A stretch of 64,000 nt of DNA. Source: Syncephalis fuscata. Taxonomy: Eukaryota > Zoopagomycota > Zoopagomycetes > Zoopagales > Piptocephalidaceae. Below, in pieces: positions 27,330-62,276 of the stretch. The notes below the pieces were generated by a model. It saw nothing but the letters and a program-made list of their open reading frames with translations. It did no database searches and was not told the origin of the DNA. Within the stretch, counting starts at the first letter, position 1. The number at the start of each line of letters is the position of its first letter. The stretch spans positions 36,839 to 100,838 of the forward strand of contig JAHLTZ010000054.1 of assembly GCA_025786725.1 (NCBI GenBank), written 5' to 3'. Made by a program: the position numbers and the translations under genes.

Positions 27330-28698
27330 CCCATGATACGTCACTACTATTGCCTAGACTTTCCCTTTTCGTATTTCCTGTATATTTATTGCATAGGTAT
27401 TTATATGATTACTGATTTATGGGCTATATTCATTTATGACCATTTATTTGGCCGATAATTTTGTTTAATGACTTCGATATCTTCTATACAATGCTTATCT
27501 TTTTATTCTCGCGATTATATAGTGCTTTTTATAGCCATTACGATATACACACATAAATAAATACACAAATAAATAAGTAGCTCAATACCAGTGACTGCCT
27601 AGCATAAAGTGTTTGTAGGCAAGTATGGTAAGCTATTTTGATCATGCAAGCGCCTTCATTATTTGTCTAATCTATTTGGTGTGAATTTTACTATTCGTCC
27701 ATGTGTATAATTACTATCTATAGTTATAGCTGTAGAAAACTTATCGCTTAGACCATTTAGGCGACCATTATTAGTCATAGCTATTGCCGTATGGATCGGT
27801 TCCTTGCACTAAACGATAAATAAAATACCGCTTCTTTTGATACCTCGTGTTTTTGTTGTTTGATTTGTTCAATGCTACAAAAAAATAATTAACACTCATA
27901 CGTATTTGGCAGTGTCATTTTTTGAAACCACCCACCACGTGCTGCGGATGATAAACTTGATAACGGTAATTTAAATTTACTCTAAATGGTATTGCTTATT
28001 GCAGCAATTAATTTATGTAATTACATTATTGATTATGCGTAAAAACTAATAAACTATTTTAATTGTTTTGTGAATATCATTAATTATATTCTAGTTTATT
28101 TATTTGTATGCGAATAAATTACTATTATTTATTATCATGCTAATTTATTGCAATTGTTGATTATCGTTAGAAAAATGATAAATAGAGGAGATATGTTTTA
28201 AAACATATTCAATCCCCGTCAGTGTTTGAGCATGGCATTGCATTCGTCCTGATTTGTTGGACTGCCAAATGGAGCTATAGTCGAATGCAACTGAATTGGC
28301 AGAAAAGCGGAGAATTGTTATACGTTGTTCAGAGTTTGAGTTTTAAGGAGCAAAGCAGATTTCTATGATATAGCCAATCAAACATTTTAAAACTATGGAT
28401 TGCTAGAATGGCGCGGAACTGTACTACTAGAACAACATCCTAATTGAGATTCGGCATTTCCACATTTACACGAGCCATATGTCTTCTAAACAAAGCCCGT
28501 GTAGATGGAATATTTGTACGTCTTCTATCGCGGCGATTGATAATGCTATTCTGCTATAAATATCTGACATTTATGTTTCTAGCCCAGTCAATCGCTACTA
28601 CACTTCTACATTCGCTACTTTTCATTTAGCTACACTTAACGCTACTGATTAACGCTACCTCGCTTTCTACAATTTACACTTAACGTTACTTTATTATC
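27330..28698. other. Intergenic region
   Basis: AT-rich stretch with no supported gene. The last 150 bp before the next start contain repeated ACTTAACGCTAC/CTACACTT-type words (28625-28695), which look like a promoter or leader. The 61-codon ORF at 28444 has no recognisable features. Confidence 0.45.
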
Positions 28699-29978
28699 AT
28701 GCACTTTATTAAATCAACCTTTGCTATCAGCGTAGCTGTTGCTCTAGCTGCCGCATCTGTTGAGTTGGGTGTCCATGCTGCGCCTGAACAGCCGGCCAAC
28801 GTAGCAACCCAGACACTTACGCCTGATCAGCAACTCAATATCCAAAACTTGGCACTTGCTGCTCAACAGCCAGATGCCTTAAAGACCGACACTCTTACTG
28901 GTACACAAAAAGAAGCTACTATGGCACTCGATGCAACCGCTAAGCAGCAGCAAACCATTGTCACGCCTGGTACGCCAGCCACTTTAAATGGAACCGCCGA
29001 TGCACTTGATACAATTGCTAAGCAGCAGCAACAAGCTGGTACAACCAGCAAACTCACTGGCAACCGCAAATCAGTACCACGGCCAATACGCCAGCCACTC
29101 AAGCTGGAGCTGCTTCGGCTCTTGATACCATCGCCAAGGAACAGCAAGCCTCTGTGGGTAGTAAACAAGTCTCTGGTCTGCCATCAACGGTGACCAAGTC
29201 CGATGATACAGCCACTGAAGATGATGCTGCTATTGCTGCTGCTGCGGAATTCGATGATGTCACTAACCGTCAACAAGGTGCCATGTTTGGATCCCAAGTC
29301 CCTGCTCAGCCACAAGTTGCTGTCAAGGCCGACACATCAGCCGCCACTCAAGGCACAGCCGCTGTAACAGCCGATGCATCAGCCGCCACTCAAGAGGCAA
29401 CTGCTGTTAAGGCTGATACACCAGCTACTGAAGAGAAAAAGGCCGATGCACCAGCGGCTAATACTAAGCCAACAAAGGAACTTGATGCTGCAACCATTGC
29501 CTTGTTGAACGACAACGGTATCGTTAAGATCTACCCAAAGTTTGATCTTGCCCAGCCAGCAGGTACCCAGGAGATTATCAAGTCTCCACTTCCAGGCGAA
29601 GGCAAGGAAGATTCTCGTTATATATTCTATGGTGCCAACAAGGTTGTTCTTCGTCAATCGGACGTCTACCGCTCCTCTTTCCGTCACTACGTTGAAAAGG
29701 TTGTTGTTACCGATCCTGCCAGCGATGGCAAGAGTAACCAGACTGCTACGGCCAAGGTTGACACTAACCTTCACGGCAGTGTTAAGAAGATTGATGTAGT
29801 GCTATTCGATGGCAAGAAGGAAAAGATCCGCATTGACCGCTCCTTCTTCCTAGACCGTCTAGAGGAACTAAAGGTCGAGCGTCTGTGGTACAAGAAGAAT
29901 GTAACTAAAGTAGAGATTGACCACACTATTACAGGCAAAATCGATGACATCGAAATTGAGCACAAAGCAAAGCTCTAG
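28699..29978 (+). CDS. Secreted Ala/Thr/Gln-rich protein with a charged C-terminal domain; one frame break
   Basis: Starts MHFIKSTFAISVAVALAAAS, a clear signal peptide with likely cleavage after VHAAPEQ-type Ala residues. The first half is an Ala/Thr/Gln-rich repeat-like linker (ALDTIAKQQQ, ALDTIAKEQQ, VKADTSAATQ, VTADASAATQ). The C-terminal 150 residues are ordered and charged, with alternating hydrophobic residues (VRIRIDRSF-like, KVEIDHTITGKIDDIEIEHK) that suggest beta strands. The first frame runs to 29193 and the second from 29154. They join if one base is missing near 29063 (CAACCG), where the 'DTIAK-Q' repeat continues in the other frame. Total length +1 is divisible by three (426 residues). 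No family was recognised; a cell-wall or extracellular role is likely. Confidence 0.65.
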
Positions 29979-34898: not shown

Positions 34899-36203
34899 AC
34901 GGGGAAACCCGTGGAAGACTCTCTGCGTCTTCTGAAAGTTTGAACGAGTCGTTCAATACACCTTTTTCACAATATCTTTGTAGTTTACTGTACTATTGTC
35001 AAATGTAGCACGCGGTAAATCCGTGACTGATTCATATATTTTACCATTGCAATTATATGATTCGGCAATGATTATGTGATGAGAGATACTGTCAAAAAAT
35101 TAACAATTAACTGTAGATTGTTAGCTACTCGTGAATGTGATTCTACAGGTAAAGTGATGGATGAAATATAAGACTATGTAAAGTTTAGATATTATAATTT
35201 TATCGATAGAAATAAGATATAATCACACAAATTTTTATTTACTCAAATTAATTTGATTAAGAATGGTATATTAAATTGCTACAACATATAAAAGCCATCT
35301 TTAAGGATCATTTAAATACAATGGCTAAATAGTGTTGATACTGATAAACATGGTCAGTTTTAACGATACAATGACATTGTACTGTTGTAATCTGGCATCA
35401 CGTACTATCGGCTGTAACTGCTGTCGTAGCAATGGCTGATACCAATATCCTTTGACGTTTCATCTAATAGTACTTTGATAGCTTGGAAATAGGATTAGTC
35501 GTTTATACGGGTAATTTGTCCGTTAGATTAAACGGCCATATTGAGCATCTTTCATAATAGATTGTTTCTCTTTTTCATTTATTGCTGAATAAACGTAAAG
35601 ATTGTTTTTCGTCTAAAAACTATTCGTGTTGATACCCCGAATTATTTGGAAAATGGCCAAAGTTCTTTAATCCTTTGATGTACGACATGCAGACGATAAA
35701 GCAAGATGTTGAATGTGGTACACTTTGTCAACTTGCCCTTTGTTTAAATCCATCATCTATTTTTATGACGTTGCACCACTTTTACTGAACCAATAAATGA
35801 ATGACTTTATGACTGCAATGCCAACATGAGATGATATTGTCACATCATATAGACACAAAGCTAAATATAGCCCAACAAAGACTGCTGCAAAGGGGTGCAC
35901 AGCATTTTAGTGGGACAGCTAGCTGCTTTAAGCATTGGATCCAGGATTAACAATGCTCAATGCATTTGAAACTAAGGCAAAGATGCACTCGGCTTTTGCG
36001 CATTGTCTAGTTGTCGTATGTGCAAGTCCCCCAACATAGAAAAGGCATGACATCAGTTCGCAATGCACACACATTAACATGCCATGTCTAGAGACTTAAA
36101 TAGAGACGGTTCATGCGATAAAAGTAATGCTGTATTGTTTTAACTCTTTGCTGCATAGCTTCACATTCTACACTCTTCTCGTTGCATTAGCATAACATTT
36201 AGC
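34899..36203. other. Intergenic region before the micro-exon gene
   Basis: No gene was supported in 1.3 kb. After about 100 bp of RPL11 3' sequence it is AT-rich single-copy sequence. Shortly before the next start lies CACATTCTACACTCTTCTCG (36161-36180), a pyrimidine-rich likely core promoter. Confidence 0.4.
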
Positions 36204-39200
36204 ATGAAAGCATCAACTTTTTCATCGCAGGACTCGCTATGGTCGCCGTTGCCAGTCTAGCCATAGTGGAGGCAACGCCGGTATTAGAACGTCGTGGTAT
36301 GTTGTATCTCTATAATAAATACAAAGTTAAACATTTACACTTTAACACTATCACCACAGATGATGCCAAAAAAACAGATGGTAATATAATTTAAATTAGC
36401 CACCAAAGTGCTAACCATGCTGCATTCCTCATTACTGTACTTGCTAAACTGCCATTGGTAGCTCGTAAGTCTTAATATGTCATAGTTGATGTAATGTGTA
36501 GTAGTATCGATTTTATTGCTAACAATATAATATAATGCTATCTCCTTATAAAATCAAAATATCAGCCAGTAAGTCAAACTACTGACTATTTAATGTGAAA
36601 CTAATTGAATGATATTTATTCACGTAATGTTCATCAAATTAATGCGAATAGAGAGTATGTCTTATATAGCATAGTATCCAGAGACACTAATTTTGTAAAA
36701 CTTACGTTTTTTGCTTATTGTTTTTAATAGAAAGTAAGTCTATAGTTGAAATATCGTTAAACAATGCTAATCTCGTATTATATTGTTTGCTTGGACCAAA
36801 TAATAAAAACAGAAGGTAGGCTGAAAGCTCAATAGTCAGCTACGATGCCATTTATAGCTCACATTGACAATGCGATGTTTGACGATTGTAAACAGAATGT
36901 TAGTTTTAGTCGTGAATACTTACTGCTAAATCATTAACTTTATAATACCTGCTGTCGTTGTATTTTACTAAATTTTCATCAATAGACAGTAGGTTGCTTA
37001 TTTTGTTTACACACTGCTGACTAACATGCTAATAAATTAATAGAGTGTAAGTTAGCTATTAAGCTGCATGCTTACAAAGCTAATTACGCAACATTTGTCC
37101 ACTATATCATGCTAAATCATTATCATAGGCTGTAAGTTGTAATGGTATCTGATTCCTATAAATGCTAACCTGTAATATTGCCATTATGCTATTGGATTGT
37201 CAATTATAATAGGGTGTAAGTTGAGGTATTGGACCAACAAATCATGAAGCTAATTGCAAAACTGTTGCTGGTAATTAATTTTATATTGTATTCTGTAGTC
37301 TGTAGGTTCTTATGCAAGAAATAATCCAATTTTATTGCTGCTAATTCTTTCATTGCCATCATGCTTGTTAAACTAAATAATTAGGGGGTCAGTTACATTA
37401 TTAACCATATAGATCGCAAAACTAATCCTGTTATTTGCTTTATTTGCTTTCTGATACTGACAGGACGTAAGTTTTTGTAACTAAATGTACTTTTGCATAT
37501 GTATAACGATATTGTAAACTACATCGACTATCTCAACCATTGAATTGAAATTAATAGATTGTAAGCTATTTATTGATTGTTATTATATCATGCTGATGCT
37601 ATTATATTGCCGAATCAAAATTAATAGGTTGTAAGTTATCGTATTAAACAAGCAATATGCTATACTAACACTCTTATACTCATTATCAACTAATGCAACT
37701 AGTCTGTAAGTTTTGAATCTAAACCACTGTTGGTATTAATAATATCTCGTGCTTTTTGAATAATTCATATAAATCTAAATAGGCCGTAAGTTTAGTTGCA
37801 TAGTTGAATTCATAATATTAATTACATATTATTTTACTATAATTGCCTCCACTACAATAATAGCTGGTATGTTATAATTAGCATTAATCGTTTTATAACC
37901 TAACTTTAATAATTCCGCATCACTCATTTGCTAAACGATTACTCTAGATTGTAAGTTGCTGTTACAAATGATAATTTATATAACTAATATTACACTTGTA
38001 ACAATAATAGGTCGTAAGTTATAACCCAGTAGTATTTTCATGCAATTAATTGTGCATTTTAAATAATATTACTTTTGATGATTCAATATCAATAGCGGGT
38101 AAGTTGCATTGTTATTTAAAACAATAGAGATTGCTAATTATATATATTTTATATTTTTATCCAATGGTAATAGATGGTAAGCTATAATATCAAATTAGCA
38201 ATAAAATTATAACTAATCTTATACAATTGTTTGTTGATAGGATGTAAGCTAAATAGCAAATATGGTCTAAAAAATACTAAATGCATTCATTAATGTTGCT
38301 CTCAACAAATTGATATAAACAGATCGTAAGTCACAAACAAAAACAATCTATACACTATACTAATCCTCTGCCATGTTTATGAATTCATATCAATAGAAAG
38401 TATGTAGAGCAGTCGGATAAGCAATTTGTAGCATTAACTATTTAATACATCTTTCTGTTAAACTCAATAATAATAGCTTGTAGGTTTTTATGCTAAGCAC
38501 TGAAGCAGTAATACTAACTTTATGGTTGTTGTTACTATCGGGTTTTATTAACCAAAATCAATAGTCGGTAAGTTTTGATATTGATTATCACTACGGTTGT
38601 TAATCTTTGACACTGTTTATATCATACTCAATCAACCACCACCAATAGATAGTAAGTGTTAGTTTTTAAATTGAGGATTTAGATTATTAACATAGTTTAC
38701 CTTTTAACTCATTGTCAATAGTCAGTAAGATACTAAACCTATTATTCAATTCAACCTATTAACTGTAGTATTGCCTAATGTTTTATCAATAATTTACAGA
38801 CAGTAAGTTTTAGTTTTAAGCAAGTCATTCAAACTCTAATCATTTGAAATCAAATGCTATCAAAACTTATGTATAATTAACAGAAAGTAGGTCATATTCA
38901 TAAAGCAATGGTGTAGTATATTAACTGCCTAATTGTCTTTAAATTACACTATCAATTTATATCCAGATGGTAAATCATATATTTGATAGTTATTTAAATG
39001 CTGACCACGTTATTTGCAAATATACTGTTTGAACTTAATCCAAACAGACAGTAAGTTGTTGCGCAAGAACATCAATTGAACCAAATGCTAAACAACAATT
39101 GTTTATTATTATATTATTAATTTAACATCAATAGTCTGTAAGTCAAAACCTTGAAGCTGTATTGGCGAACTAATTGCATAATAATACTCTATACTCGACA

Positions 39201-40109
39201 TTTTAATGCATCTAGGGGGTAAGTTGTAATTTTCTAAACAAGCTAGTGGCATGATTAATCCAAAATTATTTACCGACAAATTGATCCAAATAAGACCGTA
39301 AGTTAGACTTTGCGTGAATATCAAGTGCTAATTATATATACAATCACTTATAATTATTAAATTCATACAATAGCACGTAAGTTGATGCAGCCATTGCATA
39401 ATTTGATAAACTAACTATTCGATGTGCCATATTTGCTGTGTTTATATCAATAGGAGGTACGTTATAGACCAAGCCAATACTTTAGATATTAATCATATAA
39501 ACTACTGGGATTATTGGATTGTTTAAAATCAACAGGAAGTAAGTCGAGTGTTAAATGAATAAATATGTATATAAGCACTAATCATATATCTTTATACTAT
39601 GTTTGATACATCAACATTAACAGCTAGTAAGTCACAATATATAGTGGCAAGCCTGATCTCTTGCTTATATACTAAACACTTTATCGTATTAAATAATCTT
39701 TACAGAATGTAAGCCAAATTGCCAATTATATAACAAGTCAACAAAATAACGTTTTTTGGTATTATTTCTATTGAATTCAAAACAATAGCTGTAAGTTATG
39801 TTAATAATAGACAAAATGTAAAGCTAATTAATGTTTTTTGTCTACTAATAACCGATGCTAGGCGGTAAGCCATATTTAATTTAAATACTACACTATTAAT
39901 AATATGCCACCTATCGGCGCTATTGTATTGCCACCAACAGTCTGTAAGTGGTCAAGCAATATAATTAAATCAAATACTAACCGTCAGCTTAGCATCTAAC
40001 AGCTCGAAATCGACATAAGGTAAGCTAAAGTTATAAAAACTTGTATCCATTTAATACTGGTTTTAACCAATATCCTGCGACTAATAATAGAAAAGAAAGA
40101 CGAGAATAA
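36204..40109 (+). CDS. Micro-exon gene: about 48 exons, 43 of them 3 nt long, encoding a secreted Cys-rich mini-protein
   Basis: Exon 1 (36204-36296) encodes a signal peptide; its ATG frame and the hydrophobic AMVAVASLAIVEA frame (from 36239) differ by one base, probably missing from the T run at 36218-36222. Exon 2 is 36360-36380 (DDAKKTD). Then follow 43 exons of exactly 3 nt, one of 2 nt (39789-39790), one of 17 nt (40003-40019) and a terminal exon (40091 to TAA at 40109). Across the triplet array every intron is phase 1, so each residue is encoded by one base of one exon and two of the next. Spliced this way the frame has no stop and contains KCWFWGHCFCPDCPDGYQTF (CX5CXCX2C). About 93 residues come from 3.9 kb. 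If the 2-nt and 17-nt exons each lack a base, the end would instead read KKDENKAQGTAQTLAYFKC. No family was recognised; an apoplastic, effector-like or cell-wall role is only a guess. Confidence 0.82.
36462..39943 (+). other. Array of three-nucleotide exons (coordinates)
   Basis: First base and triplet of each exon: 36462 CTC; 36566 CCA; 36652 AGA; 36731 AAA; 36813 AAG; 36896 AAT; 36986 ACA; 37044 AGT; 37129 GCT; 37213 GGT; 37299 TCT; 37385 GGG; 37464 GAC; 37558 ATT; 37628 GTT; 37703 TCT; 37783 GCC; 37864 CTG; 37948 ATT; 38011 GTC; 38096 CGG; 38174 ATG; 38241 GAT; 38333 ATC; 38397 AAA; 38477 CTT; 38565 TCG; 38649 ATA; 38722 TCA; 38800 ACA; 38884 AAA; 38967 ATG; 39048 ACA; 39135 TCT; 39216 GGG; 39295 ACC; 39374 CAC; 39454 GAG; 39536 GAA; 39624 CTA; 39706 AAT; (39789 CT, 2 nt); 39862 GCG; 39941 TCT. 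Spacing is 58-104 bp, mean about 80. Each is preceded by AG (mostly AATAG or ACAG) and followed by GT (mostly GTAAGT/C; also GTAGG, GTATG, GTACG, GTTAGT, GTCAGT). Most of the introns checked contain a CTAA-type branch site. Confidence 0.85.
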
Positions 40110-43100
40110 GGCACAAGGCACTGCTCAGACTCTGGCATACTTTAAATGTCCAGACAGCTGACAGCAAGCTTTTCGATTACAAGTCGTTTAGTGGATTCAC
40201 CATTAAAGATTATAGCTTGTGGTGCCGCTATATAGTTTACACTTTATTTCATTGAAATAAATATAATTTATAGCAAAGTTGATTCATTTTTAATCATTCA
40301 TGTGTGCTTGTTATAAAATCCGTAATCCAGTTATATTCTAGTAATATGTAGATATAAGAGTTTGTTGTTTACCGTTGTACTGTTAATAGCAATTATTTTA
40401 CTGTTAATTTATTTATAATTTATGATTATAATGACTATTCATAAGTATACATTATAAATATTTAAATAAACAATATATTAATATTAGTAAGCGATTGAAG
40501 AGTATGAGTGGCATTATCCCATTGTGCTGTGTCTCAATAATTAAAATCAATAAAATATGTCTAGTATATTATAGAATGCTATATAGTAGTGTGGAATAGA
40601 ATGGAAATAATATAGGTAAATGATGGATATATACATACTAGATAATAAATCTACAATGATGAGTATTTGATGATTGATGTCATTCGCCACCCATCATCAT
40701 GTTCAATAAATTGAATATTATTTAAAATAGTTATTGTAGTGCATTATTAGTATAATATTAGCATGCTTATCAATTAAAATTTAATAGTATTATGCAGCAA
40801 ATAAGCTGCTATGCAAATACAGTAGTTATTTTTAATCCATTACTTAAAATACCATAATATATTAAACAGTGATATTTAAATATGCTTTCTTATATAAGTT
40901 AATACTCAGATACATAGTGTATGCATTTGGATAAATTTACAGTTTAGAGTAATGTTTTAAAATATATAAAGCTCCCACCTTGTTGTCATTACTACATCAC
41001 CACCCTATAACATTATTATATTAATACACTTAACCATACATGCATAAATAATATTGTAAATAAAGCAGTGTACGATATGTAGTAACTGTTAAAATAGCGC
41101 AATGAGTTGTTTCGCATTGCACTGCAGTTCCAGATAATACCCGAGTGCAATAAAAACAGTCGATACACTGAATTCAAGGTGTGACTTCAATAAAAATACG
41201 AAACAATCACTGCGCTATATAAAACACCCAAACTGCGCTCCACTCGCTCCGTTTTCAAACAACGTAACATTACATTATTGCGTGGTCTAACCAATCCCGT
41301 ATGGATGATCCACAGCTGGGCTAAAGAAGCTATTTTAATAGTGCAAATAATATTATGATATTGGCAACATGTAAGCGATAATCCTTCAAAACACTCATAT
41401 GCAAGCTGCAAGCTAGCAGTGAACTGCCAATAAATAGCTTTGTTATATACGACATCGCTATATACTCATTACTGCAATAATTGCACTATTGCAGCAATTG
41501 GTTTTGTAGTGCCATGCCAAAAAGTATGGCCCCTTTGAATATTTATATTGGCCACCACGATTACGATAGTCGCCTTAGCAATATCCGTCAACAAACGTGC
41601 TGTCCGTCTGTTACAGCTTGTAACAAGAGAATATACAGACAAACAGACAGACACGCATTGCACACTACAGCATTGTATAATATTGGACAATTCTTGGGGT
41701 GTCTATTTAGTACACAACTTGTCTGGCGAGTTAATAATACTATACGCATCTGCGCATATCAAAATCAGACAGTCTAGAGCGCACTAGACCATAATTCTTT
41801 GCAAATGCGAAGTTCAAAGTAGCTCGCCTATTCTGTAACAAGAGTAGATAACGGTAAAATGAAATAGGAGAAGAAATAGCGCTTAAAATGAGCAGCATAG
41901 GCGAGATCCAAGTTGGATAGCCAGTGTAAGACAAGAACATGTTCATGGGTCAATTAATGATAATATGCATGACCATATTAATAAACTTGAATAGCGACAT
42001 ATTTATAAAACATCAGTAGTTATCGTTATTTTACTATGAGACATTGTTAATGTAATTTTAATAAATATCATCAAACAAATCATTATATTTAGTGATCAAT
42101 AAAAAACAGCAAATTACGGCCATTGATTTACTAGCTAATTCCAGCAGTCTGTAACCAATTGTAACAGCCATCTTTTTGCTTCAAACTGTTCATATGCTAC
42201 GAATGAATGATTGATAGACACAATAAAGTTATAAATTATCAACTCCGGTTTGTATTTATCATCATCGCTGCTAATAAAGCTAGCAAAAATTCACATCCAA
42301 ATAACACAAAGTTCATAATATTCATGCCCGCTCATTACCTCCAATAAAACAGCTTTTTCGTAATTACATGAGTAAATATTTTTATTGCCAGTTACCGTGA
42401 ATTGTATTTATGTACTGCCGAGATGATTTTAATCCCGATAAAAAGTGGGGGAGTCTTCAAACATAACTTCCGACAATTATATGAAGATAACGGAGCAGTG
42501 GAGTAGAACGTCCAATTGATTACTCCGCCTTACTGCTTCACACATGGCGTTTGAAAACATTCTGTTTGGTTGCTAAAGGCCCCCATACTTTACCTGAGTT
42601 ATAACATTTCTACACTCTGCTTCATTAGCATGTGAACACTACTATTCTCGGCATTAACTGCGCTGAAAACAAAAATCCTAAACATGAATTTAGTGGTGCG
42701 GATGTTACACCGGTGTTACTAAACTTGATCATCTGAACAAATAAATTAGGCAAGTGCAACGAGATAGAGCCGCTTTTTTTAAATAGCGACCCTTCACTTC
42801 GTATATTAGAGCAGCTGCTGGCACGCTCTTTTTCGGCCTTTTTCATCTCGTTCTTGCTTTCTCGTCTTTTTCTCCTTACCTTCCTCCCTTACCTCGTCCC
42901 TTCTTACGTGCGCCTTTTTTTTCAACGACCACGACCACGACTAGCTATTTCTATAGCTTAAAATTTTTTGGACGTACGTCTTCAGCTAACTAACTACTTC
43001 CTTACGAATTTGAATACCTTGATTTTTGTCTGCAAAGTATTGACGTTTTTTTGTTGGTCTTCTACGAAATATAACAACAAAAGCAATAACAGCAACAACA

Positions 43101-50801: not shown

Positions 50802-52184
50802 TCAGGCGCTTGCCCCAAGTGCTAATCGTATGTGTGTGGAGTGTTCGTATTGATTTAATAGTTCTTGAGCATTTTGCAAGTTTTCAATTGGCTCCCAAGA
50901 ACTGTCATCTTTTGAGTATCCTTTCCATTTTACTAAGTATTCCTCCACGTCATTCATCCCCACTTTTCTTGTTCTTCTACCTATTATTCTTTCCACTTCC
51001 CACTCAGCTTGTCCTTCAATCATTTCTGGCATAGGCATAGTAATTGCCGTTGGTCGTCCTGGAAATACGTTCGGATCTTTGTACCTGGTAAGCTGAGAGA
51101 TGTGTATAACTGGGTGAATGCGCATGCCTGGTGGTAGTTCGATCTTGTACGCGGTCGGACTAATGACCTCTATGATAGTGTACGGGCCAGTTTTACGTGT
51201 ACGAAGGGCGGAGTTTGACTGTTCTGCTACGTGTCGTGGCATTGTGTGTCGTGTTGACAGCATTACTCGATCACCTATTTGGAAGGTGTCATCTCGACGT
51301 CGTTGGTTAGCATATTGTGCCTGTCTATCCTGAGCGTACGATATGTTGTCTTTTACCGCCTTTTGTATCGCTTCTAGTCGCTGTAAAAACTCCTCAGCTG
51401 CTGGTACTGTTATATTATCGCTATCAGCTGGCATGGTCGTTGTTATTGGATGACGTCCATATAAAGAGAAGAAAGGTGTAATACCAGTAGTAGCGTTAGT
51501 ACTATTGTTATAGGCAAATTCTAATGCAGGTAAGTATTTATCCCAATCATCTTGTTGTTGGCTAATAACATGACGTAACATTTCTTCGATGGTTCTGTTG
51601 GTTCGCTCAGTCTGGCCGTCAGTCTGTGGATGATTAGCAGTTGATCTGGCTAATTTAGTACCGGTAAATTCAAATAAGGCTTCCCAGAATCGGCTAGTAA
51701 ATCGTGGGTCACGATCAGAGATTATGGATCGTGGAAGACCATGTAGACGATATACATGGTCAAAGTATAGTCGTGCGGTGTCAACAGCTGTGACAGTGTT
51801 GGTAGTAGGCACGAAGTGGGCTTGTTTACTAAAGCGGTCAACTACTACCATTAACGCATCTGCACCTTTTTCAGTGAGTGGTAGATGTGTAATAAAATCC
51901 ATACTAACTGAGTCCCATGCATATGCAGGTATTTCAAGTGGTTGTAATAGGCCACCTGGTCGTCGATTAGTGGCCTTATTACGTTGGCAAGTATCGCAGG
52001 AAGTGACATAGCGGTGGACGGTGTTGTGTAGCGATGGCCAGTAAAAATGGCGATGAATAGCCAGGTATGTTTTGTCTACACCTAGATGGCCGGCTACGAT
52101 GGCATCGTGATGATCGTGTAGTATATCTTGACGTAATTGGTTATTTTTAGGTACACATAATCGATCACCGTTGAAATATAACAA
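50802..52184 (-). CDS. Element 1 integrase and chromodomain
   Basis: 460 codons. Integrase zinc-binding HHCC motif (HHDAIVAGHLG ... CDTCQRNK), catalytic core with the D-D-E residues in MDFITHLP, ISDRDPRF and TDGQTERTNRTIEE, then a C-terminal chromodomain (VERIIGRRTRKVG ... [20 protein letters not shown]). The chromodomain targets integration to particular chromatin. The upstream frame (52208-53980) ends 23 bp away, at the internal RNase H deletion. Confidence 0.92.
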   Translation of the reverse strand: MLYFNGDRLCVPKNNQLRQDILHDHHDAIVAGHLGVDKTYLAIHRHFYWPSLHNTVHRYVTSCDTCQRNKATNRRPGGLLQPLEIPAYAWDSVSMDFITHLPLTEKGADALMVVVDRFSKQAHFVPTTNTVTAVDTARLYFDHVYRLHGLPRSIISDRDPRFTSRFWEALFEFTGTKLARSTANHPQTDGQTERTNRTIEEMLRHVISQQQDDWDKYLPALEFAYNNSTNATTGITPFFSLYGRHPITTTMPADSDNITVPAAEEFLQRLEAIQKAVKDNISYAQDRQAQYANQRRRDDTFQIGDRVMLSTRHTMPRHVAEQSNSALRTRKTGPYTIIEVISPTAYKIELPPGMRIHPVIHISQLTRYKDPNVFPGRPTAITMPMPEMIEGQAEWEVERIIGRRTRKVGMNDVEEYLVKWKGYSKDDSSWEPIENLQNAQELLNQYEHSTHIRLALGASA

Positions 52185-52207
52185 TCCATCAGTTAGTCGA
52201 TACTTGG

Positions 52208-53980
52208 CTAACTTGGTACGAAGAGCTGGAAGTGGCGTTCAGCGGGCTTCATTTTGCGCGAATGATAAGCAATGGGGTGCCAATGACCATCACGATCTTG
52301 CTGCAACAAGGCAGCACCTACAGCAAAGCCAGAAGCATCGGTTTCTACACGGAAAGGCTGATGTACGTCGACTATTTGTAATACTGGAGCTTGGGTCATT
52401 GTCTTCTTTAGTATATCAAATGATTTTTGAGCTTCAATGGTCCATAAGAAACGACGATCTTGACATAGTAGATCGGTAAGTGGTGTGGCTATAGCAGAGT
52501 AATTTTTAATAAACTTTCTATAGTAGTTGGCCAAGCCTGTAAAAGCGCGTATATCAGTGACGTTTCGTGGTGTAGGCCAATCAGAAATGGCCTTTATCTT
52601 AGCTGGATCAGCTTTTACACCATTAGCACATAGCAAATGGCCTAAATATTCAACTTCATCCTTAAATAATTCACATTTTGACCATTTGGCGTATAAGTGG
52701 TTGTCGCGAAGTATTTGTAATACTTGGCGTAGGTGTCGTTCGTGGTCTTCTGGTGTTTTACTGTAGATGAGAATATCATCCAAATAGACAATAACACATT
52801 TGTCTAGTAATGGTCTAAATAGATAGTTTACCAGTGTTTGAAAACTGGATGGTGCATTACTTTGACCAAAACTAACTACTAGCCATTCAAAGTGACCATA
52901 GCGGGTGCGAAAGGCCGTCTTGGGTATATCCTCTTCTACTACACGTAGTTGATGATAAGCAGAGCGTAGATCTATCTTAGAAAAGACAGTTGCGCCTAAC
53001 ACTTGGTCGAATAAATCTTCAATCCTTGGCAATGGGTACTTGTTCTTGATAGTGATTTTATTCAGCGCTCGATAATCAACACACATGCGCATACCACCAT
53101 CTTTCTTCTTGACGAAAAGAACAGGCGCACCGTAGGGCGATATACTAGGACGAATATATCCCGCGTCAAGTAATTCGGTAAGTTGTGTTTTAAGTTCTTT
53201 AAGTTCCAGAGGGGACAATCGGTATAAGGCGTTACTGGGTGGTGTTGCGCCTGGTATCAAATCGATACGATGATCTAATCCATCACGTTTTGGCGGCAAT
53301 TGTTTCGGTAGTTTGTCGGGAAATACGTCAGCAAAGTCGTTGCGTAATCCAGTCAATACTGGAGTGATGGATGGGTCATTTGAGTGATTAGCAACTTCAT
53401 TTAGCGGATTATCGGCTGGTCGTACAATGGCTAGATGTAATTCATCTGTTCGTTTAGCATAGCGTTTAAATTGCAAGGCAGATAATGGCAATATGGTTGG
53501 TTGTCTATGTGCATTTGCTTGCCATACAATGTGTCGATTATCATGCATAAACGTAACAGTGTTAATTAACCAATCTATCTGTGGATTATAGCGGGCTAGC
53601 CACGGTTTACCGAGTATTACGTCGTGTTCTAAAGGAACAACCAAAAACGATAAACGGTCTTTGTAACCAGTGGAAGTAAGGAGCGCACCAGCCAGTTGGC
53701 GGTCACACGTATACGAACGGCCATCTGCCACGTGTACGGTCGATGGGTATTTAACTTTATGGGTGTGTGCGCGAATATGTTTCACAAGATTTGCGGATAC
53801 AAAGTTATCAGCTGCTCCACTATCTATTAGTACCGTAACTTTTCTACCTAATAAACGAGCATTGATACGTAATAAATCGTGAGCGTGTGGATATTTTGAC
53901 AATAAACTTTGTTCCTTTAAAAGTGCATCAGTGTCATCAACAACATTAGCATGAGGTAATAATGGCGCAGAAACAAGCAA
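52208..53980 (-). CDS. Element 1 protease, reverse transcriptase and truncated RNase H
   Basis: 590 codons. Aspartic protease motif [10 protein letters not shown] near residue 55, reverse transcriptase from about residue 230 ([56 protein letters not shown]), then the start of RNase H ([20 protein letters not shown]). The frame ends abruptly after [10 protein letters not shown], where element 2 continues with over 100 more residues of RNase H before integrase. In the other frame the text resumes with [19 protein letters not shown], so the missing part is a deletion within the element. Confidence 0.9.
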
Positions 53981-54094
53981 TTCATCATCAGAAGTAAGCG
54001 AGAGAAGATCGGGGTGGCATCAACAGAAATAGTATTTAGTTGGGCACCAGTAGGTTGTGATGCTGACACTACTGGTGCTGGACTTTTCCCGTAT

Positions 54095-55267
54095 TCAAAG
54101 GACAAAAACGCATGATGTGGCCATATTGGCGACAGCGGAAACAGCCGCCGTTTTGTCGTAACGTTTCGCGTTCAGCATCAGTGAGTGGGGTAACCGATTA
54201 ATGGTGTCTAGTTCCATTGGTATAGGGCCATTTCTTGGTTGTGTGTTAATCGGAGGGCGAAACTGTTGTTGTTGCGTTGGACGAGGTGTGTTATGGCGAA
54301 CGTTGTTAGTTGCTGATTTGCCAATGTACTTGCGTAACGAATCAAAATGAGTAGCCACTTCTATGGCTGATTGTAATGTAGACGGTGTAGCTTTTTGTAC
54401 TTCGTATTTAACTTCGTGATTCAGTCCATTAATAAACATAATACGTAAAGCTAACTGCCACATTTCGGAATCAGGCATAGGAAAAGTGTGCCTTAAATTG
54501 TTAAATTCTAACGTATAATCATTGACACTTTTGTTGGCTTGTCGTAACATGTGAAGACGACTAAAAGCGTCTTCTTCTACCGAAGTACCGGGACAGATGT
54601 GTTGGCGTAGTGCGTGAGCAAACGCACTCCAAGTGGTATATGGATGACTATAGTCACCGTCAGAGTGAATAGTATTACTCTGCCACCAACTAGAGGCAGT
54701 GCCATCTAAATAAGTGGCGGCTACTTCGATGCGTTCAATTTCATCAGGGATATACCTGACATATTGCCGTGCACGGTACAACCAAGTCTCTACTGAAATA
54801 TCCTTATCATTGCCGTTGTATCGTGGCGGGGCAGATGGACGAGCAGTAGGAGGGGCAGTGACAGAAGTAGATGGAATAGCGGCAATAGCAGCGGCAGTAT
54901 TGGCAGCGGCAGTAACAACAGCATCGGCAGTAGCAGCATTATTTTGGGACACAATTTGCGTTACCAAACTTGAAATAAAGTCAGCGTTGGTAACGAAACT
55001 TGTGTTAGGCAATTCTGGGTTCATAATGGGTGTTATTTCTTCTTGAGTATCAGTAGTGTATTCGTTCGTGTGGCTTGTGATCGGTGGTTCGTACTGGGTA
55101 TCGGTGTATTCGTTCGTGTGGCTTGTGATCGGTGGTTCGTACTGGTTATCTGGGTATCGAAAGGTTACTGGTGGATCTTGGATGAGTTCGTCGGCGAAAG
55201 ATTGACGGGCTTGTTCGTGGTCGAAGTATTTCGCACCACGTCGTTGGTTCATATCACTGTAAGTCAA
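54095..55267 (-). CDS. Element 1 Gag
   Basis: 390 codons, beginning 43 bp inside the 5' LTR boundary. A retrotransposon-gag domain is seen in YIPDEIERIEVAATYLDGTA, SSWWQSN and LHMLRQANKSVNDYTLEFNN. A zinc knuckle, CFRCRQYGHIMRFC (CX2CX4HX4C), is present near 54100-54150 but in a shifted frame, so one base seems missing near 54186. The N-terminus carries a tandem 45-bp duplication (YEPPITSHTNEYTDTQ twice). Confidence 0.88.
   Translation of the reverse strand: MTYSDMNQRRGAKYFDHEQARQSFADELIQDPPVTFRYPDNQYEPPITSHTNEYTDTQYEPPITSHTNEYTTDTQEEITPIMNPELPNTSFVTNADFISSLVTQIVSQNNAATADAVVTAAANTAAAIAAIPSTSVTAPPTARPSAPPRYNGNDKDISVETWLYRARQYVRYIPDEIERIEVAATYLDGTASSWWQSNTIHSDGDYSHPYTTWSAFAHALRQHICPGTSVEEDAFSRLHMLRQANKSVNDYTLEFNNLRHTFPMPDSEMWQLALRIMFINGLNHEVKYEVQKATPSTLQSAIEVATHFDSLRKYIGKSATNNVRHNTPRPTQQQQFRPPINTQPRNGPIPMELDTINRLPHSLMLNAKRYDKTAAVSAVANMATSCVFVL
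55056..55147. repeat. Tandem duplication of about 45 bp in element 1 gag
   Basis: Two adjacent copies containing TTCGTGTGGCTTGTGATCGG encode the repeated peptide ITSHTNEYT with flanking TQYEPP. They are nearly identical, so the duplication is recent. Confidence 0.85.
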
Positions 55268-55294
55268 GGCAACGAGGTGGATAGGTTTAAACTA

Positions 55295-55308
55295 CCCGTT
55301 GCTACCAT
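55295..55308 (-). other. Element 1 primer binding site
   Basis: On the minus strand the LTR end is followed after about one base by TGGTAGCAACGGGT, beginning with the TGG expected opposite a tRNA CCA end. The tRNA species was not identified. Confidence 0.6.
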
Positions 55309-55309
55309 A

Positions 55310-55647
55310 TGTAACCGTAGATACAGCGAACTGTTGCGGTTACTACGAGTCACAATACAATAATGTATATAAAATAAAAATGAATATTGAAAGTGAACTA
55401 ATGTCTTTATTTGTGGTCATAATCATACGCGTATTTATATTGTTCTATTGGATATATGGAATATCTAAGTAGAACAATAAAAGAAAATAAAATAAAAATA
55501 AAAGAAAATAAAAGATAAAGATAAAACAATACGCGGTGGCGGAGTGTTAACTTCATCGTGGACCATGTGTGATGATCGGTGTGTTTAAACACCGATCATA
55601 ATGTCTAAAAATGGTAATAATAAATGAGAGGGAGAATTTTTGTTACA
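55310..55647 (-). repeat. Element 1 LTR (5' LTR of the minus-strand element)
   Basis: Begins TGTAACCGTAGATACAGCGA and ends GTTACA. It contains two hairpins, TATTGTTCTA...TAGAACAATA and TGATCGGTGT...ACACCGATCA. Its right end joins the pol sequence of element 2 directly. Confidence 0.9.
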
Positions 55648-58600
55648 AACAACGTAATTCAGGGAAACGACAACCGTCAGTAATTAAGTGCGGCACACTT
55701 ACTGACGGCCAGGTTGCCGCTAATACTCCGATACCACCCGGATTTGAGCAGTCTACACTCATTCAAGGTCGCGCTAGCTCCGGTTTAATTACAGTAGCAC
55801 CCAAAATCAATGGTGTTCCAGCCCATGTATTAATCGATTCTGGTGCATCCACCAACTTTATGGATATTGAATTTGCCAAGAGGGCTCAAGTACATGTTAC
55901 GAAACAAGCAAATTCAGCCAATGTAAAGTTGGGAAATGGTATGGAGTGCGGTGTATCTGGTACTGCTAATAAAGTGCCTATTATTTTCAATTATCTGAAA
56001 GAACAAATTGATTTTACTATTATGAAATTGGGCAACTATAATGCAGTGCTGGGTATGCCATGGCTAAGAAAACATGAAGCGCAAGTAGATTGGAAGACCG
56101 GTGTTATTAATTCTAATTGTAATTCAGCACCCAAAAGTACATTAGAAATTACCGACAAAATTCAGCCTTCATTCATGTCAATAGAAGAAGTCGAGCAAAC
56201 AGAAGCCAATGATATGATTTTATTAGCGATGATAAAAGAAAACAAAGAAAAAAATGATACATCGTTAAATGGCCGTTACGCGCGATTGTTGGGTGAATTT
56301 GCCGATGTTGGACCAGAAGAATTACCACCTGGTTTACCACCAAAAAGAGACATTGATATACGTATCAATTTGGTGCCACATCAGCAGCCACCATTTCGGC
56401 CTACATACCATCTGGCAAAGAAAGAGTTAGACGAGTTGAAGAAACAGATCGATGATTTGTTAGAAAAAGGCTTTATTAGGCCTAGTACATCACCATTTGG
56501 TGCACCTGTACTATTTGTGCGGAAGAAAGGAGGTGATTTACGTATGTGTGTGGATTACAGAATGTTAAACGCACAAACAATTCGTGATCGTTATGCGTTG
56601 CCACTGATCGATGAATTATTCGATCAGTTACATGGGGCGAAAGTATTCTCAAAAATAGATTTGAGAAGTGGATATCATCAAATAAGAGTAAATGAGGATG
56701 ATATTCACAAAACAGCGTTTAGAACGCGCTATGGGCATTATGAGTGGACGGTGATGGGATTTGGATTGACTAATGCACCGTCAGTATTTATGCGATTAAT
56801 GCATAATGTATTTCATAAATTACTAGACAAGTGTGTAGTGGTATTTTTGGATGATATTTTAATATTTAGTAAAAATCATACCGAACATGAGTGGCACTTA
56901 CGGCAAGTGTTACAATTACTAAGAGAAAACAAATTATATGCCAAATTAAGCAAATGTGAATTTGGTAAAGATGAGGTGGAATTTTTGGGACATATTGTTA
57001 GTGGCGAGGGTATAAGACCACTACACGATAAAGTAATGGCTATTGCAAATTGGCCTATACCAAACAATCTGAAAGAACTGCGCTCTTTCCTCGGATTAAC
57101 TGGCTATTATAGACGGTTTATTCGTGGATATGCTGATACTGCACGGCATTTAAGTCAATTGACTAAGAATGATGAGCCATTCACATGGGGAGATAATCAA
57201 AATACAGCATTTGACACACTACGTAATGCGATAGTTACAGCACCGGTATTGGCTATACCAAATGTTAATGCACCATTTATCGTTACTACAGATGCATCTG
57301 ATTATGCAATTGGTGCAGTATTATCACAAATAACCGATAATAATGAACATCCTGTTGCATTTATGTCACGTATATTACAGGCAGCCGAAAAGAATTATGC
57401 TACATACGATAAAGAAATGTTAGCTATTCTAGAAGCTACTAAGTTATGGCGCCCATATCTTAGTTATGGCCATTTCGTAATATATACTGACCATGCACCG
57501 CTTACGCGCCTGTTTAAGCAAAAGGAAATGTCATCACGCCAAACGCGTTGGATTGAGCAGTTGCATCAATATGATTTTGATATCATATATAAGCCAGGCC
57601 GTGCTAATGTTGTAGCCGATGCATTATCACGACGTACATCGCCTAGTTATAACGCTATAAATGCTACAAATCTCTCTTTATTCCAACAGCGTGTTTTAGC
57701 TGGTTACGATCATGATGAACACTTTACAGGTGTAAAGAATGTTCTTATGGGAGGAAGGGCTGCAGGCAATGCTGCGGCAGTTAAAATTTCGCGACATTTT
57801 CGGCTTGATGATCATGGATTAATGTACGAGTTAAAAGACATTGAACCACGATTATGCATACCAAATTACGATAATCTATATTTGGATATACTTAATGATC
57901 ATCACGATGCAGCTGCTCACTTCGGCGAAGAAAAGACTATTGCAGCCATTAAGCGTAAATATTATTGGCCTGGATTGTCCAACATGACAAAGCGTTATAT
58001 TAGGTCATGTGAAGTGTGCCAACGCACTAAACACTCCCAGCAGTTACCTGGTGGACTATTACAACCACTTCAAATTCCGGAAGGACGTTGGCGCGATATT
58101 GCAATGGATTTTATAGTGCAATTGCCACGTACTAGTAGTGGTTATGATGCTATTTTTGTTGTAATCGACCGCTTTACTAAGCGCGCTCACTTCGTACCGA
58201 TGAAGACGACAGCTACGGCTGTTGACGTTGCACAATTGTTCATGCAGAACATTGTACGTCTTCATGGCATGCCCCGCTCTATTGTATGCGACCGTGACGC
58301 CAAGTTTACCAGTAAATTTTGGCAAGAACTACATAAAATACTTAACGTACGTATATTTATGTCAACAGCATTTCATCCCGAAACAGATGGCCAAACAGAA
58401 CGCGTAAACCGCACGCTAGAACAATTATTACGTACATGCGTTAACTATCAGCAAAATGACTGGGATCAACATTTAGCATTAGTTGAATTTGCGTACAATA
58501 ATGCTAAGCAGTCATCAACTGGTAAATCGCCATTCTATACTGATTTGGGTAGCCACCCTACATGCCAGACGATTTAGTACGACAACACAACTTCGGCAAC

Positions 58601-59182
58601 AAAACTAACGTGCAAAGTACTGCTGCATTCCTGCAAAAGATGAATGACATTTATTTAGAAACACGCGAAGCGTTAAAGAAAGCACAAGAACGACAAAAAC
58701 AATATGCAGATCAGAAACGAAGAGAAGTAGAATTTAAAGTTGACGATATGGTGCTGTTATCAACAAAGAATTTGACACCAGAAGCGGAACGTGAACGACC
58801 AAAACGTAAATTGGCTCATCAATTTACGGGACCATTTAAGGTCATTCAACGGGTATCGACTGTAGCGTACAAACTACAATTAGCACCTAACATGAAAATG
58901 CACAATGTGTTCCATGTTAGTCTGCTAAAGAAGTACGAAGAAAACCCGCCAGAGTTTATAGATCGTTACCCGCCACCGCCACCACCGGAAATAATAGATG
59001 GCAACGAAGAATACGAAGTAGAAAGCATATTAGCTAAACGGGTCAAACGCAACAAAATAGAATATCTCGTTAAATGGAAAGGCTATGCGGAACATGATGC
59101 AACCTGGCAATCGTTACGTGACTTAGACAACGCATCAATACTAGTACAAGAGTATGAAAAGCAACACCAGAGTCGGCGTTAA
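55648..59182 (+). CDS. Element 2 Pol: protease, reverse transcriptase, RNase H, integrase, chromodomain
   Basis: The frame actually opens inside the LTR at 55611 and runs to 58577; a second frame from 58562 completes it to 59182. Domains: protease ([13 protein letters not shown]), reverse transcriptase ([36 protein letters not shown]), RNase H ([15 protein letters not shown] ... [12 protein letters not shown]), integrase HHCC (HHDAAAHFG ... CEVCQRTK) and core ([30 protein letters not shown]), then a chromodomain ([13 protein letters not shown] ... [19 protein letters not shown]). The break at about 58559 is one missing base. All catalytic residues looked for are present, so this pol is nearly intact. 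Confidence 0.92.
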
Positions 59183-59196
59183 TCCAAGGGGGATGA

Positions 59197-59367
59197 TGTA
59201 ACGATATTATATTCGTTACGGGAAATAATTGTATAATTTAAATATTATGCAATTATTTTCCCACAACACCTTAAATTAAAGCTCCGCAAAGCTTATAAAT
59301 AACACACAATTTCTGTTTAATAAAAGATAATCTTTATTCCATTATATCCTATTTTACGGTTGTTACA
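59197..59367 (+). repeat. Element 2 3' LTR
   Basis: 171 bp from TGTAACGATATT to GGTTGTTACA, preceded by a purine tract. It contains CTTAAATTAAAGCTC and a TATAAAT box near 59295. The bases beyond 59367 belong to element 3's integrase. Confidence 0.8.
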
Positions 59368-60704: not shown

Positions 60705-60753
60705 AAATGCTCGTACTTGCTTCTTATCGACTGGTGTTGGCCATTGCGTAATC

Positions 60754-62264: not shown

Positions 62265-62276
62265 TTTGCAGTTGGC

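What the first reader, a model, noticed from the sequence alone, without database searches (positions are those of the whole stretch)
36204..40109. A fungal micro-exon gene made of 43 single-codon-sized (3-nt) exons
Seen in the sequence: 43 times in 3.5 kb, an intron-like stretch of 55-101 nt with a GT start and an AG end, and in most cases a CTAA-type branch site, is followed by exactly three bases and then another GT donor. Spacing is regular (58-104 bp). Joining the triplets in the phase set by exon 2 gives 41 consecutive sense codons and a coherent cysteine-rich segment (KCWFWGHCFCPDCPDGYQTF) behind a signal peptide. Established knowledge: schistosome micro-exon genes and aphid bicycle genes use many short symmetrical exons to make variable secreted proteins, and isolated 1-3 nt exons are known in plants and animals. 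A run of dozens of 3-nt exons is beyond anything I know. Inference: the cell must define introns, not exons, to splice this, and exon skipping would give a large family of in-frame protein variants.
Basis: partly seen in the sequence, partly recalled or inferred. Interest (0 to 1): 0.98.

Follow-up and report, generated by a model that had tools for sequence, protein, structure and literature searches.

The report
Genes split at every codon
In a fungus that parasitises other fungi, many genes for small secreted proteins appear to be chopped so finely that almost every codon of the mature protein is cut by its own intron, which would be a striking test of how splicing works and how new proteins arise.

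Summary
Among GTRNGY-type donors in the array (36300-40010) a YAG lies exactly 3 nt upstream 37 times, 2 nt once, and never at 0, 1 or 4-15 nt. The genome matches Syncephalis fuscata, a mycoparasite. Genome-wide, YAG-NNN-GTAAGTT occurs 1180 times against 152 for the reversed pattern; with four bases instead of three, 185 against 242. The array is one of many. A secreted-protein family shares a signal-peptide exon ending in phase 1; of 11 loci fetched for that exon, 10 carry arrays of 3-nt exons. In 475 such exons the phase-1 reading has 0 stops in 449 codons; shuffling triplet order gives 26.5 (minimum 14 of 2000). Nine spliced products share a cysteine pattern with an intron-free paralogue, whose homology to a split gene fades at the first donor and resumes at the last acceptor. 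So these are best read as one-codon exons, each codon split after its first base. No cDNA was available: splicing is inferred, not seen, and exon skipping is untested. The window copy is unique in its genome and irregular: upstream ATG out of frame, one 2-nt unit, uncertain 3' end.

The parts
36204..36296 (+). Exon 1, signal-peptide-like, ends in Arg-Arg plus one base (phase 1). The ATG at 36204 is out of frame with the signal-like stretch; an in-frame ATG is at 36239 (MVAVASLAIVEATPVLERR).
   Evidence: the peptide aligns with family exon 1 of L040 over 17 residues, 11 identical, 0 of 5000 shuffles as good, 20 of 5000 if only the hydrophobic part is shuffled; no DNA match
36297..36377 (+). Intron 1 (GTATGTT donor). 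With the earlier acceptor, intron 1 is 36297-36359 and exon 2 is 36360-36380 (21 nt); both keep the frame.
   Evidence: sequence
36378..39943 (+). Array of 44 three-nt exons, first bases 36378 36462 36566 36652 36731 36813 36896 36986 37044 37129 37213 37299 37385 37464 37558 37628 37703 37783 37864 37948 38011 38096 38174 38241 38323 38397 38477 38565 38649 38722 38800 38884 38967 39048 39135 39216 39295 39374 39454 39536 39624 39706 39862 39941
39789..39790 (+). Unit with a 2-nt exon (CT) inside the 156-bp gap; either included (shifts the frame) or skipped (the frame of the array goes on). Unresolved.
40003..40019 (+). Candidate 17-nt exon after the array, CAG acceptor and GTAAGC donor
   Evidence: seven of the eight models; sequence
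40091..40109 (+). The models end elsewhere (40255, 41171 or 41184, by setting), so the 3' end is uncertain.
   Evidence: sequence

Best explanation
This is a protein-coding gene of Syncephalis fuscata in which a signal-peptide exon is followed by dozens of exons of exactly three nucleotides, each between ordinary-looking short spliceosomal introns of about 80 nt. The introns fall after the first base of a codon (phase 1), so every codon of the mature part is assembled from two neighbouring exons. It is very probably a far-diverged member of a large family of small secreted proteins, many of them cysteine-rich, of which many genes are split in this way and some are intron-free in the coding part. 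Inferred working: each intron is recognised as a unit by its own strong donor, branch site and YAG acceptor (intron definition). Introns are removed one after another, so that each 3-nt exon is joined to the growing exon before its other splice site is used. The arrays grow, shrink and shuffle by duplication, deletion and recombination of whole intron-plus-triplet units, each of which adds or removes one in-frame codon. Intron-free members probably arose by copying spliced mRNA back into the locus. The products are probably secreted peptides that act on the host fungus.
For: Shown by computation. Window: donors sit 3 nt after YAG 37 times, 2 nt once, never 0, 1 or 4-15 nt; flat outside the array. 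Genome: 1180 strict 3-nt sites against 152 in the reversed-pattern control; 4-nt sites 185 against 242. Coding: 475 three-nt exons in 26 chains have 0 stops in 449 phase-1 codons, against a mean of 26.5 and a minimum of 14 in 2000 order shuffles; 56 Cys against 32.8 +- 3.9, maximum 43 of 500. Phase: exon 1 ends in phase 1 in all 8 loci where one search found the family exon 1. Family: 10 of 11 loci fetched for their exon 1 (L051-L057, L059-L062; not L061) carry arrays; the exon-1 query carried 7 bases of the intron, which favours split genes, and L054 is a near copy of L041. A contiguous paralogue, P0098, is one 69-codon ORF; with 9 spliced split genes, chosen from 19 models as the fuller Cys-rich ones, it shares C39, C42, C46 and C64. 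At DNA level it matches split gene L047 upstream (310/378), in exon 1 (80/94, ending 3 bases before the donor) and from the first base after the last acceptor (113/130). Unit = codon: near-identical copies L041 and L042 differ by a 79-nt insertion, one intron plus one triplet. Window introns have almost no likeness left to each other (mean identity 0.589, shuffled 0.570), yet splice sites and the 3-nt spacing are kept, as expected under selection for splicing. Inferred: order of removal, mode of growth, origin of intron-free members, target.
Against: No transcript or peptide was available; splicing of any of these exons has not been seen. Two annotated NCBI models, P0101 and P0102, share exon 1 and then seem to read into an array intron. 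Reading each triplet as a codon by itself (phase 0) is also nearly open, 2 stops in 475, and fully open in the window, so stop counts alone do not single out phase 1 against phase 0; the shared exon-1 phase, the order test and the cysteine pattern do. Not all products have the pattern of P0098: L047 and the coiled-coil-like gene at C2:650-664 kb do not, and an extended chain of the latter has one phase-1 stop near its end. The window copy has an out-of-frame upstream ATG and a 2-nt unit; other arrays have occasional 2-, 4- or 6-nt units, and one (L045) has lost the exon-1 donor. Some copies may be decayed. Origin by unit duplication is not proved: the most similar intron is the neighbour in only 1 to 7 cases per array. 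The window exon 1 has no DNA match to the family.
Confidence: 0.92

Rival explanations
1. The arrays are real and spliced, but mostly by variable inclusion: a donor may join any later acceptor, so that each gene makes a mixture of in-frame peptides and the full-length product is only one of many.
For: Array introns are phase 1, so skipping 3-nt exons keeps the frame. The 2-nt unit of the window and the one in the C2:650-664 kb gene sit in arrays whose triplets read on sensibly if that unit is skipped (RGTK-CV; KFQQLQNNINKLR).
Against: No transcript data. Selection keeps the order-dependent reading open over the chains (0 of 449 stops) and keeps a cysteine pattern in part of the family, which suggests that full inclusion matters.
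Confidence: 0.35
2. The arrays arose by transposition of an introner-like intron into an intron-free coding sequence, codon by codon, rather than by duplication of intron-plus-triplet units. (A rival on origin, not on how the gene is read.)
For: Array introns form one homologous family: a single 79-nt intron finds 46 matches (40 of 47 first-look candidates scored), of which 30 cover both intron ends. Intron-free paralogues exist. The nearest neighbour is rarely the closest relative.
Against: Insertion would have to hit the same codon phase every time, dozens of times per gene. By hand comparison, 41 of the 46 matches lie within 4 kb downstream, same strand, of a family exon 1, so no genome-wide introner is seen. 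A whole-unit indel is seen (L041/L042).
Confidence: 0.15
3. The triplets are not translated; the array is one long intron or a regulatory run of splice sites (splicing delay or recursive splicing), and the triplets are by-products.
For: Recursive splicing through small exons is known (abstract of PMC6224609 in the listing).
Against: 0 stops in 449 phase-1 codons against 26.5 in order shuffles; cysteine pattern shared with an intron-free paralogue; exact 3-nt length rather than 0-nt recursive sites.
Confidence: 0.04
4. Chance, tandem repeat or assembly artefact.
For: The array introns of other members are alike, which could suggest a minisatellite.
Against: Shuffles, genome-wide counts, many loci, and a window array whose introns are no longer alike.
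Confidence: 0.01

Closest known systems
Schistosome micro-exon genes (MEGs)
   Same: Most of the coding region in very small symmetrical exons, so skipping keeps the frame; secreted products at a host-parasite interface (passages of PMC4350168).
   Different: MEG exons are, as I recall, mostly 6-36 nt. Here they are 3 nt, so that every codon is split; the organism is a fungus; intron-free members exist in the same family. Sequence relation was not tested.
Aphid bicycle genes, including the megacycle gene
   Same: Many microexons in fast-evolving effector candidates (passages of PMC9168663).
   Different: The megacycle gene has more than 100 microexons for about 2000 amino acids, that is on average many codons per exon; here it is one codon per exon.
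Isolated 1-3 nt exons (Arabidopsis APC11, Drosophila homothorax)
   Same: An exon too small for exon definition; intron definition combined with recursive, one-after-another removal was proposed for APC11 (passages of PMC4674806). Homothorax: abstract of PMC7392893 in the listing.
   Different: Single exons in otherwise normal genes; here runs of up to 50 in a row and about 3200 in the genome by extrapolation.
Introner-like elements
   Same: Families of homologous introns multiplied in one genome (recalled).
   Different: 41 of 46 matches sit in one gene family, at a fixed codon phase and 3-nt spacing.
Fungal small secreted cysteine-rich proteins
   Same: Signal peptide, dibasic site, short mature part, often Cys-rich.
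   Different: Of six proteins scanned none reaches a Pfam cut-off (one Toxin_2 match of 21.7 bits against 25.1), and no solved structure matched with confidence.

Membership tests
Schistosome-type micro-exon gene | Most of the coding region after the signal peptide lies in very small symmetrical exons | tested here: met
   3-nt exons, phase 1 on both sides
Schistosome-type micro-exon gene | Exons of about 6-36 nt (range recalled) | tested here: not met
   3-nt exons dominate: 37 of the 38 acceptor-donor pairs up to 15 nt apart in the window array
Schistosome-type micro-exon gene | Alternative inclusion gives protein variants | not testable with these tools
   No transcript data held
Schistosome-type micro-exon gene | Sequence homology to MEG proteins | not tested
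   No MEG sequence was compared; the two protein searches with family members listed only S. fuscata proteins
Spliceosomal (U2-type) introns | GT donor near GTAAGT, branch motif, YAG acceptor | tested here: met
   40 of 44 GT[AG]NG, 43 of 44 YAG, CTRAY in 29 of 44 against 15 of 44 in reversed introns
S. fuscata MKLSIA secreted family (defined here) | Exon 1 with signal peptide and Arg-Arg, ending in phase 1 | tested here: met
   Same layout and phase; 11 of 17 residues identical to L040, 0 of 5000 shuffles as good, 20 of 5000 when only the hydrophobic part is shuffled; but no DNA match and the upstream ATG is out of frame
S. fuscata MKLSIA secreted family (defined here) | Array of phase-1 3-nt exons (split members) | tested here: met
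S. fuscata MKLSIA secreted family (defined here) | Cysteine pattern C-x2-C-x3-C ... C of P0098 | not tested
   The window product was not put into the alignment; it is Cys-rich by eye
Introner-like elements | Homologous introns dispersed over many unrelated genes | tested here: not met
   41 of 46 matches to one array intron lie just downstream of a family exon 1; 5 were not assigned (compared by hand)
Scorpion short toxin Toxin_2 (PF00451) | Score at or above the curated cut-off | tested here: not met
   21.7 bits against 25.1 for one of six proteins

The most novel reading that the evidence does not exclude
Syncephalis fuscata keeps a system of about a hundred genes, some 3000 one-codon exons, in which secreted peptides are written one codon per intron-exon unit. 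Peptides lengthen, shorten and reshuffle by whole units of about 80 bp, and at the RNA level optional skipping of units turns each gene into a peptide library. Splicing thus works as a codon-by-codon assembly line that generates host-directed diversity.
Probability: 0.35. Interest if true: 1.

Novelty: categorically new. Interest (0 to 1): 0.96.

Why it matters
Limits on exon size are usually explained by steric arguments: two splice sites a few bases apart cannot both be bound at once. Runs of up to 50 consecutive 3-nt exons, in many genes, would mean that a spliceosome can join codon fragments one after another over kilobases with the frame kept. That makes intron definition, order of intron removal and fidelity directly testable in one gene. 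It also offers a way for coding sequence to change one codon at a time through gain or loss of an intron unit. Practically, such genes are easily missed by annotation: at least two NCBI models of the family seem to stop inside an array intron. Similar genes may lie hidden in other genomes and can be sought with the simple AG-NNN-GT spacing signal.

Tried and rejected
Chance and simple tandem repeat: rejected. Exons of 4 nt: not enriched genome-wide. Zero-length recursive sites: none inside the array. A copy of the window gene elsewhere in the genome: none. Faster evolution of triplets than of introns: a first comparison gave 52-58% against 16-21% in three pairs, but introns within and between arrays are so alike (off-diagonal identity 0.68-0.73, aligned 0.73-0.81 apart from the near-identical pair L041/L042) that units may be out of register. 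In L057/L062, triplets next to reciprocal-best introns of 0.8 or more differed at 4 of 24 bases, so no claim of accelerated evolution is made. Early gene-finders were too strict or over-fitted. The terminal exon that some models chose (LQSNHYSNTL) is probably 3' UTR, because the intron-free paralogue has the same sequence beyond its stop. Of the 19 models, 9 went into the alignment (L040, L041, L051, L052, L053, J055, L056, L057, L062), picked as the fuller Cys-rich ones and cut by hand near the last cysteine where the end was uncertain. Left out: L009, L043, L044, L045 and L060 (failed or short), L042 and L054 (near copies of L041), L059, L047 and J046; the window product was not put in either. 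Left out before the stop count: L009, L042, L044 and L054 (near copies), the extensions L058 and L063, and L001-L039 and L048-L050. Two short chains on the strand opposite to the gene in L053 and L055 were kept. Structure of P0098: low confidence (pLDDT 66, pTM 0.44), no fold match at E 0.001. Relatives in other species: none in two protein searches with family members.
Full report
1. Observation. The stretch 35401-41000 was read base by base. There are 44 sites AG-NNN-GT in chain from 36378 to 39941. Inside 36300-40010 the donors of the form GT[AG][ATG]G[TC] have a YAG exactly 3 nt upstream 37 times, 2 nt upstream once, and at none of the distances 0, 1 and 4-15; in the rest of the window every distance occurs 1-7 times per strand. 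Chains of such sites are far longer than in 20 Markov shuffles. A phase-aware gene-finder with exon length free up to 60 nt places 44 three-nt exons in the real sequence and at most 3 in 15 shuffles. Of the 44 introns counted, 43 end in YAG, 40 start with GT[AG]NG and 29 hold CTRAY, against 15 in the reversed introns; lengths fall in all three classes modulo 3 (16, 18 and 10). In the phase given by exon 1 the triplets read D-APKKKEYKCWFWGHCFCPDCPDGYQTFDINKNDIWDPRGTKCV. Reading each triplet as a codon by itself is also open here; the remaining frame has stops.

2. Irregularities of the window copy. The ATG at 36204 is out of frame with the signal-peptide-like stretch; an in-frame ATG is at 36239. 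One unit at 39789 has a 2-nt exon; it is either included, which shifts the frame, or skipped, which keeps the array frame. The 3' end is uncertain: one search gave several ends by setting. The copy has no second copy in the genome. Its introns have hardly any likeness to each other (0.589 mean identity, shuffled 0.570). Splice sites and 3-nt spacing have therefore outlived the intron sequences, which argues for long selection on splicing, or for introns that were never alike.

3. Organism. A conserved protein of the window matches Syncephalis plumigaleata, S. pseudoplumigaleata and Thamnocephalis best among named records. Family members match Syncephalis fuscata records whose contig lengths, 1005272 and 443508, equal those of contigs C1 and C157 of this genome. 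I take it as S. fuscata. Syncephalis species are mycoparasites (passages).

4. It is a family. YAGNNNGTAAGTT occurs 603+577 times in the genome, its reversed control 77+75; with four bases between, 82+103 against 122+120. Clusters on C1 and C2 were fetched and read as arrays of 3-nt exons. In eight of those loci (L009, L040-L044, L046, L047) one search found an exon 1 like MKLSIAVVCTIVVALVASTAMVDANPALVRR, ending in phase 1. Searching with one exon 1 and seven bases of its intron gave 40 scored matches of 194 candidates. Eleven of these loci were then fetched: 10 have arrays of 3-nt exons, L061 has not. The query favours split genes, and L054 is a near copy of L041. The window exon-1 peptide aligns with that of L040 over 17 residues, 11 identical; 0 of 5000 shuffles score as well, 20 of 5000 when only the hydrophobic part is shuffled. 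A protein search with P0098 scored 150 of 313 candidates; 105 of these matches end at residue 31-38, near the exon-1 boundary, and 45 go further (recounted). Not every one of the 105 need be split, as some have longer open frames. Of chain exons 152 of 475 fit the strict pattern, so 1180 minus the control of 152, divided by 0.32, suggests about 3200 three-nt exons in the genome; 'about a hundred genes' rests on the 105. Both are extrapolations.

5. It is coding. In 26 chains (475 exons; near copies L009, L042, L044 and L054 left out, two short opposite-strand chains kept in), the phase-1 reading has 0 stops in 449 codons. Shuffling the order of triplets within chains gives 26.5 +- 3.9, minimum 14 of 2000. 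The next frame has 40, as in shuffles (40.2). The frame in which each triplet is a codon has 2 stops in 475 and cannot be tested by order shuffles. Cysteine occurs 56 times against 32.8 +- 3.9. With the phase of exon 1 this makes the introns phase 1: a codon is the last base of one exon plus the first two of the next. One result against: a longer chain of the gene at C2:650-664 kb, bridging larger gaps, has one phase-1 stop near its end.

6. Intron-free paralogues. P0098, an annotated S. fuscata protein of 69 aa, is one unbroken reading frame at two places. Aligned with nine spliced split genes, chosen as said under Tried and rejected, it shares the signal part and C39, C42, C46 and C64; the last column depends on the alignment. 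L047 and the coiled-coil-like gene do not show this pattern. At DNA level the P0098 locus matches the split gene L047 upstream (310 of 378), over exon 1 (80 of 94, the last three bases before the donor not aligned) and after the last acceptor (113 of 130). By eye the bases before that acceptor are unlike, so homology fades within 3 nt of the first donor and resumes at the first base after the last acceptor (sequences). Because promoter and 3' flank are shared too, the intron-free state probably came from recombination of spliced cDNA with the locus rather than from insertion elsewhere; this is inference.

7. Growth by units. Array introns of this family are one homologous set (in five arrays mean identity 0.64-0.81 at all distances tested, best other 0.80-0.88). 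The near-identical copies L041 and L042 differ by a 79-nt insertion, one intron plus one triplet, and so by one codon. The closest relative is a neighbour in 7 of 34, 4 of 38, 1 of 41, 1 of 79 and 5 of 18 introns, so shuffling between units or arrays is likely. Of 46 matches to one array intron, 41 lie within 4 kb downstream of a family exon 1 on the same strand, by hand comparison; 5 were not assigned.

8. Splicing. Donors in the arrays are close to GTAAGT (these sites were chosen by donor score, which biases that count) and do not need a G at the last exon base (101 of 475 exons end in G). One ordinary gene of the window has an intron of 47 nt with GTAAGT and TAG ends. I infer intron definition and stepwise removal, as was proposed for the single-nucleotide exon of Arabidopsis APC11 (passages). 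Exon skipping would keep the frame but was not seen or tested.

9. Product. Signal peptide, Arg-Arg site and a short mature part, often Cys-rich; one array codes for a long helix-like part instead. Six proteins scanned have no Pfam match above cut-off; one Toxin_2 match of 21.7 bits is below 25.1. Profile matches to solved structures are weak (best E 0.04; vicilin hairpinins at E 1.4 and above). The P0098 model has helices in the mature part at low to middling confidence and no significant fold match. A role against host fungi is inferred from the signal peptide, Cys content, family size and the mycoparasitic life.

10. What is known. Nine searches of the held library for microexons in fungi, tiny exons, Syncephalis, Zoopagomycota secreted proteins, MEGs and bicycle genes listed no paper that by title or start of abstract is about arrays of 3-nt exons; lists were capped, and subscription papers and preprints are largely not held. 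[quoted passage not shown] MEGs (passages) and bicycle genes (passages) are the nearest in architecture, with larger exons. I call the codon-by-codon gene a new class of gene architecture built on known splicing chemistry; a stricter reader may call it an extreme variant of micro-exon genes.

Noticed in passing
window 50802-62969: Several long open frames that look by eye like Ty3/gypsy retroelement polyproteins, on both strands; a possible source of reverse transcriptase for cDNA-mediated intron loss. No domain search was run.
   Followed up: no
window 28684-29978 (+): Alanine-rich open frame with a signal-peptide-like start (MHFIKSTFAISVAVALAAASVELGVHA) that runs over two overlapping frames, perhaps with an intron.
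   Followed up: no
L045 (C2:595001-605000, minus strand): Family exon 1 with GATATGC where other members have the GTATGTT donor, upstream of an array whose 17-exon chain is open in phase 1; looks like a decaying member.
   Followed up: partly
L040, L041, L042, L051-L056, fourth exon: A 6-nt (two-codon) exon such as AGGAAT, CGGAAT or CTCAAT recurs at about the same place, among 3-nt exons.
   Followed up: partly
NCBI proteins P0101 and P0102 (also P0099, P0100, P0106, not checked): Annotated S. fuscata models that share exon 1; the tails of P0101 and P0102 (KLYC...) resemble the read-through of an array intron seen. Automatic annotation seems to miss the split genes.
   Followed up: partly
L043 and L044 (C2:515-525 kb and 534-544 kb): Nearly identical family genes in inverted orientation some 15 kb apart (2 differences in 1986 intron bases): recent inverted duplication or an assembly fold.
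   Followed up: no
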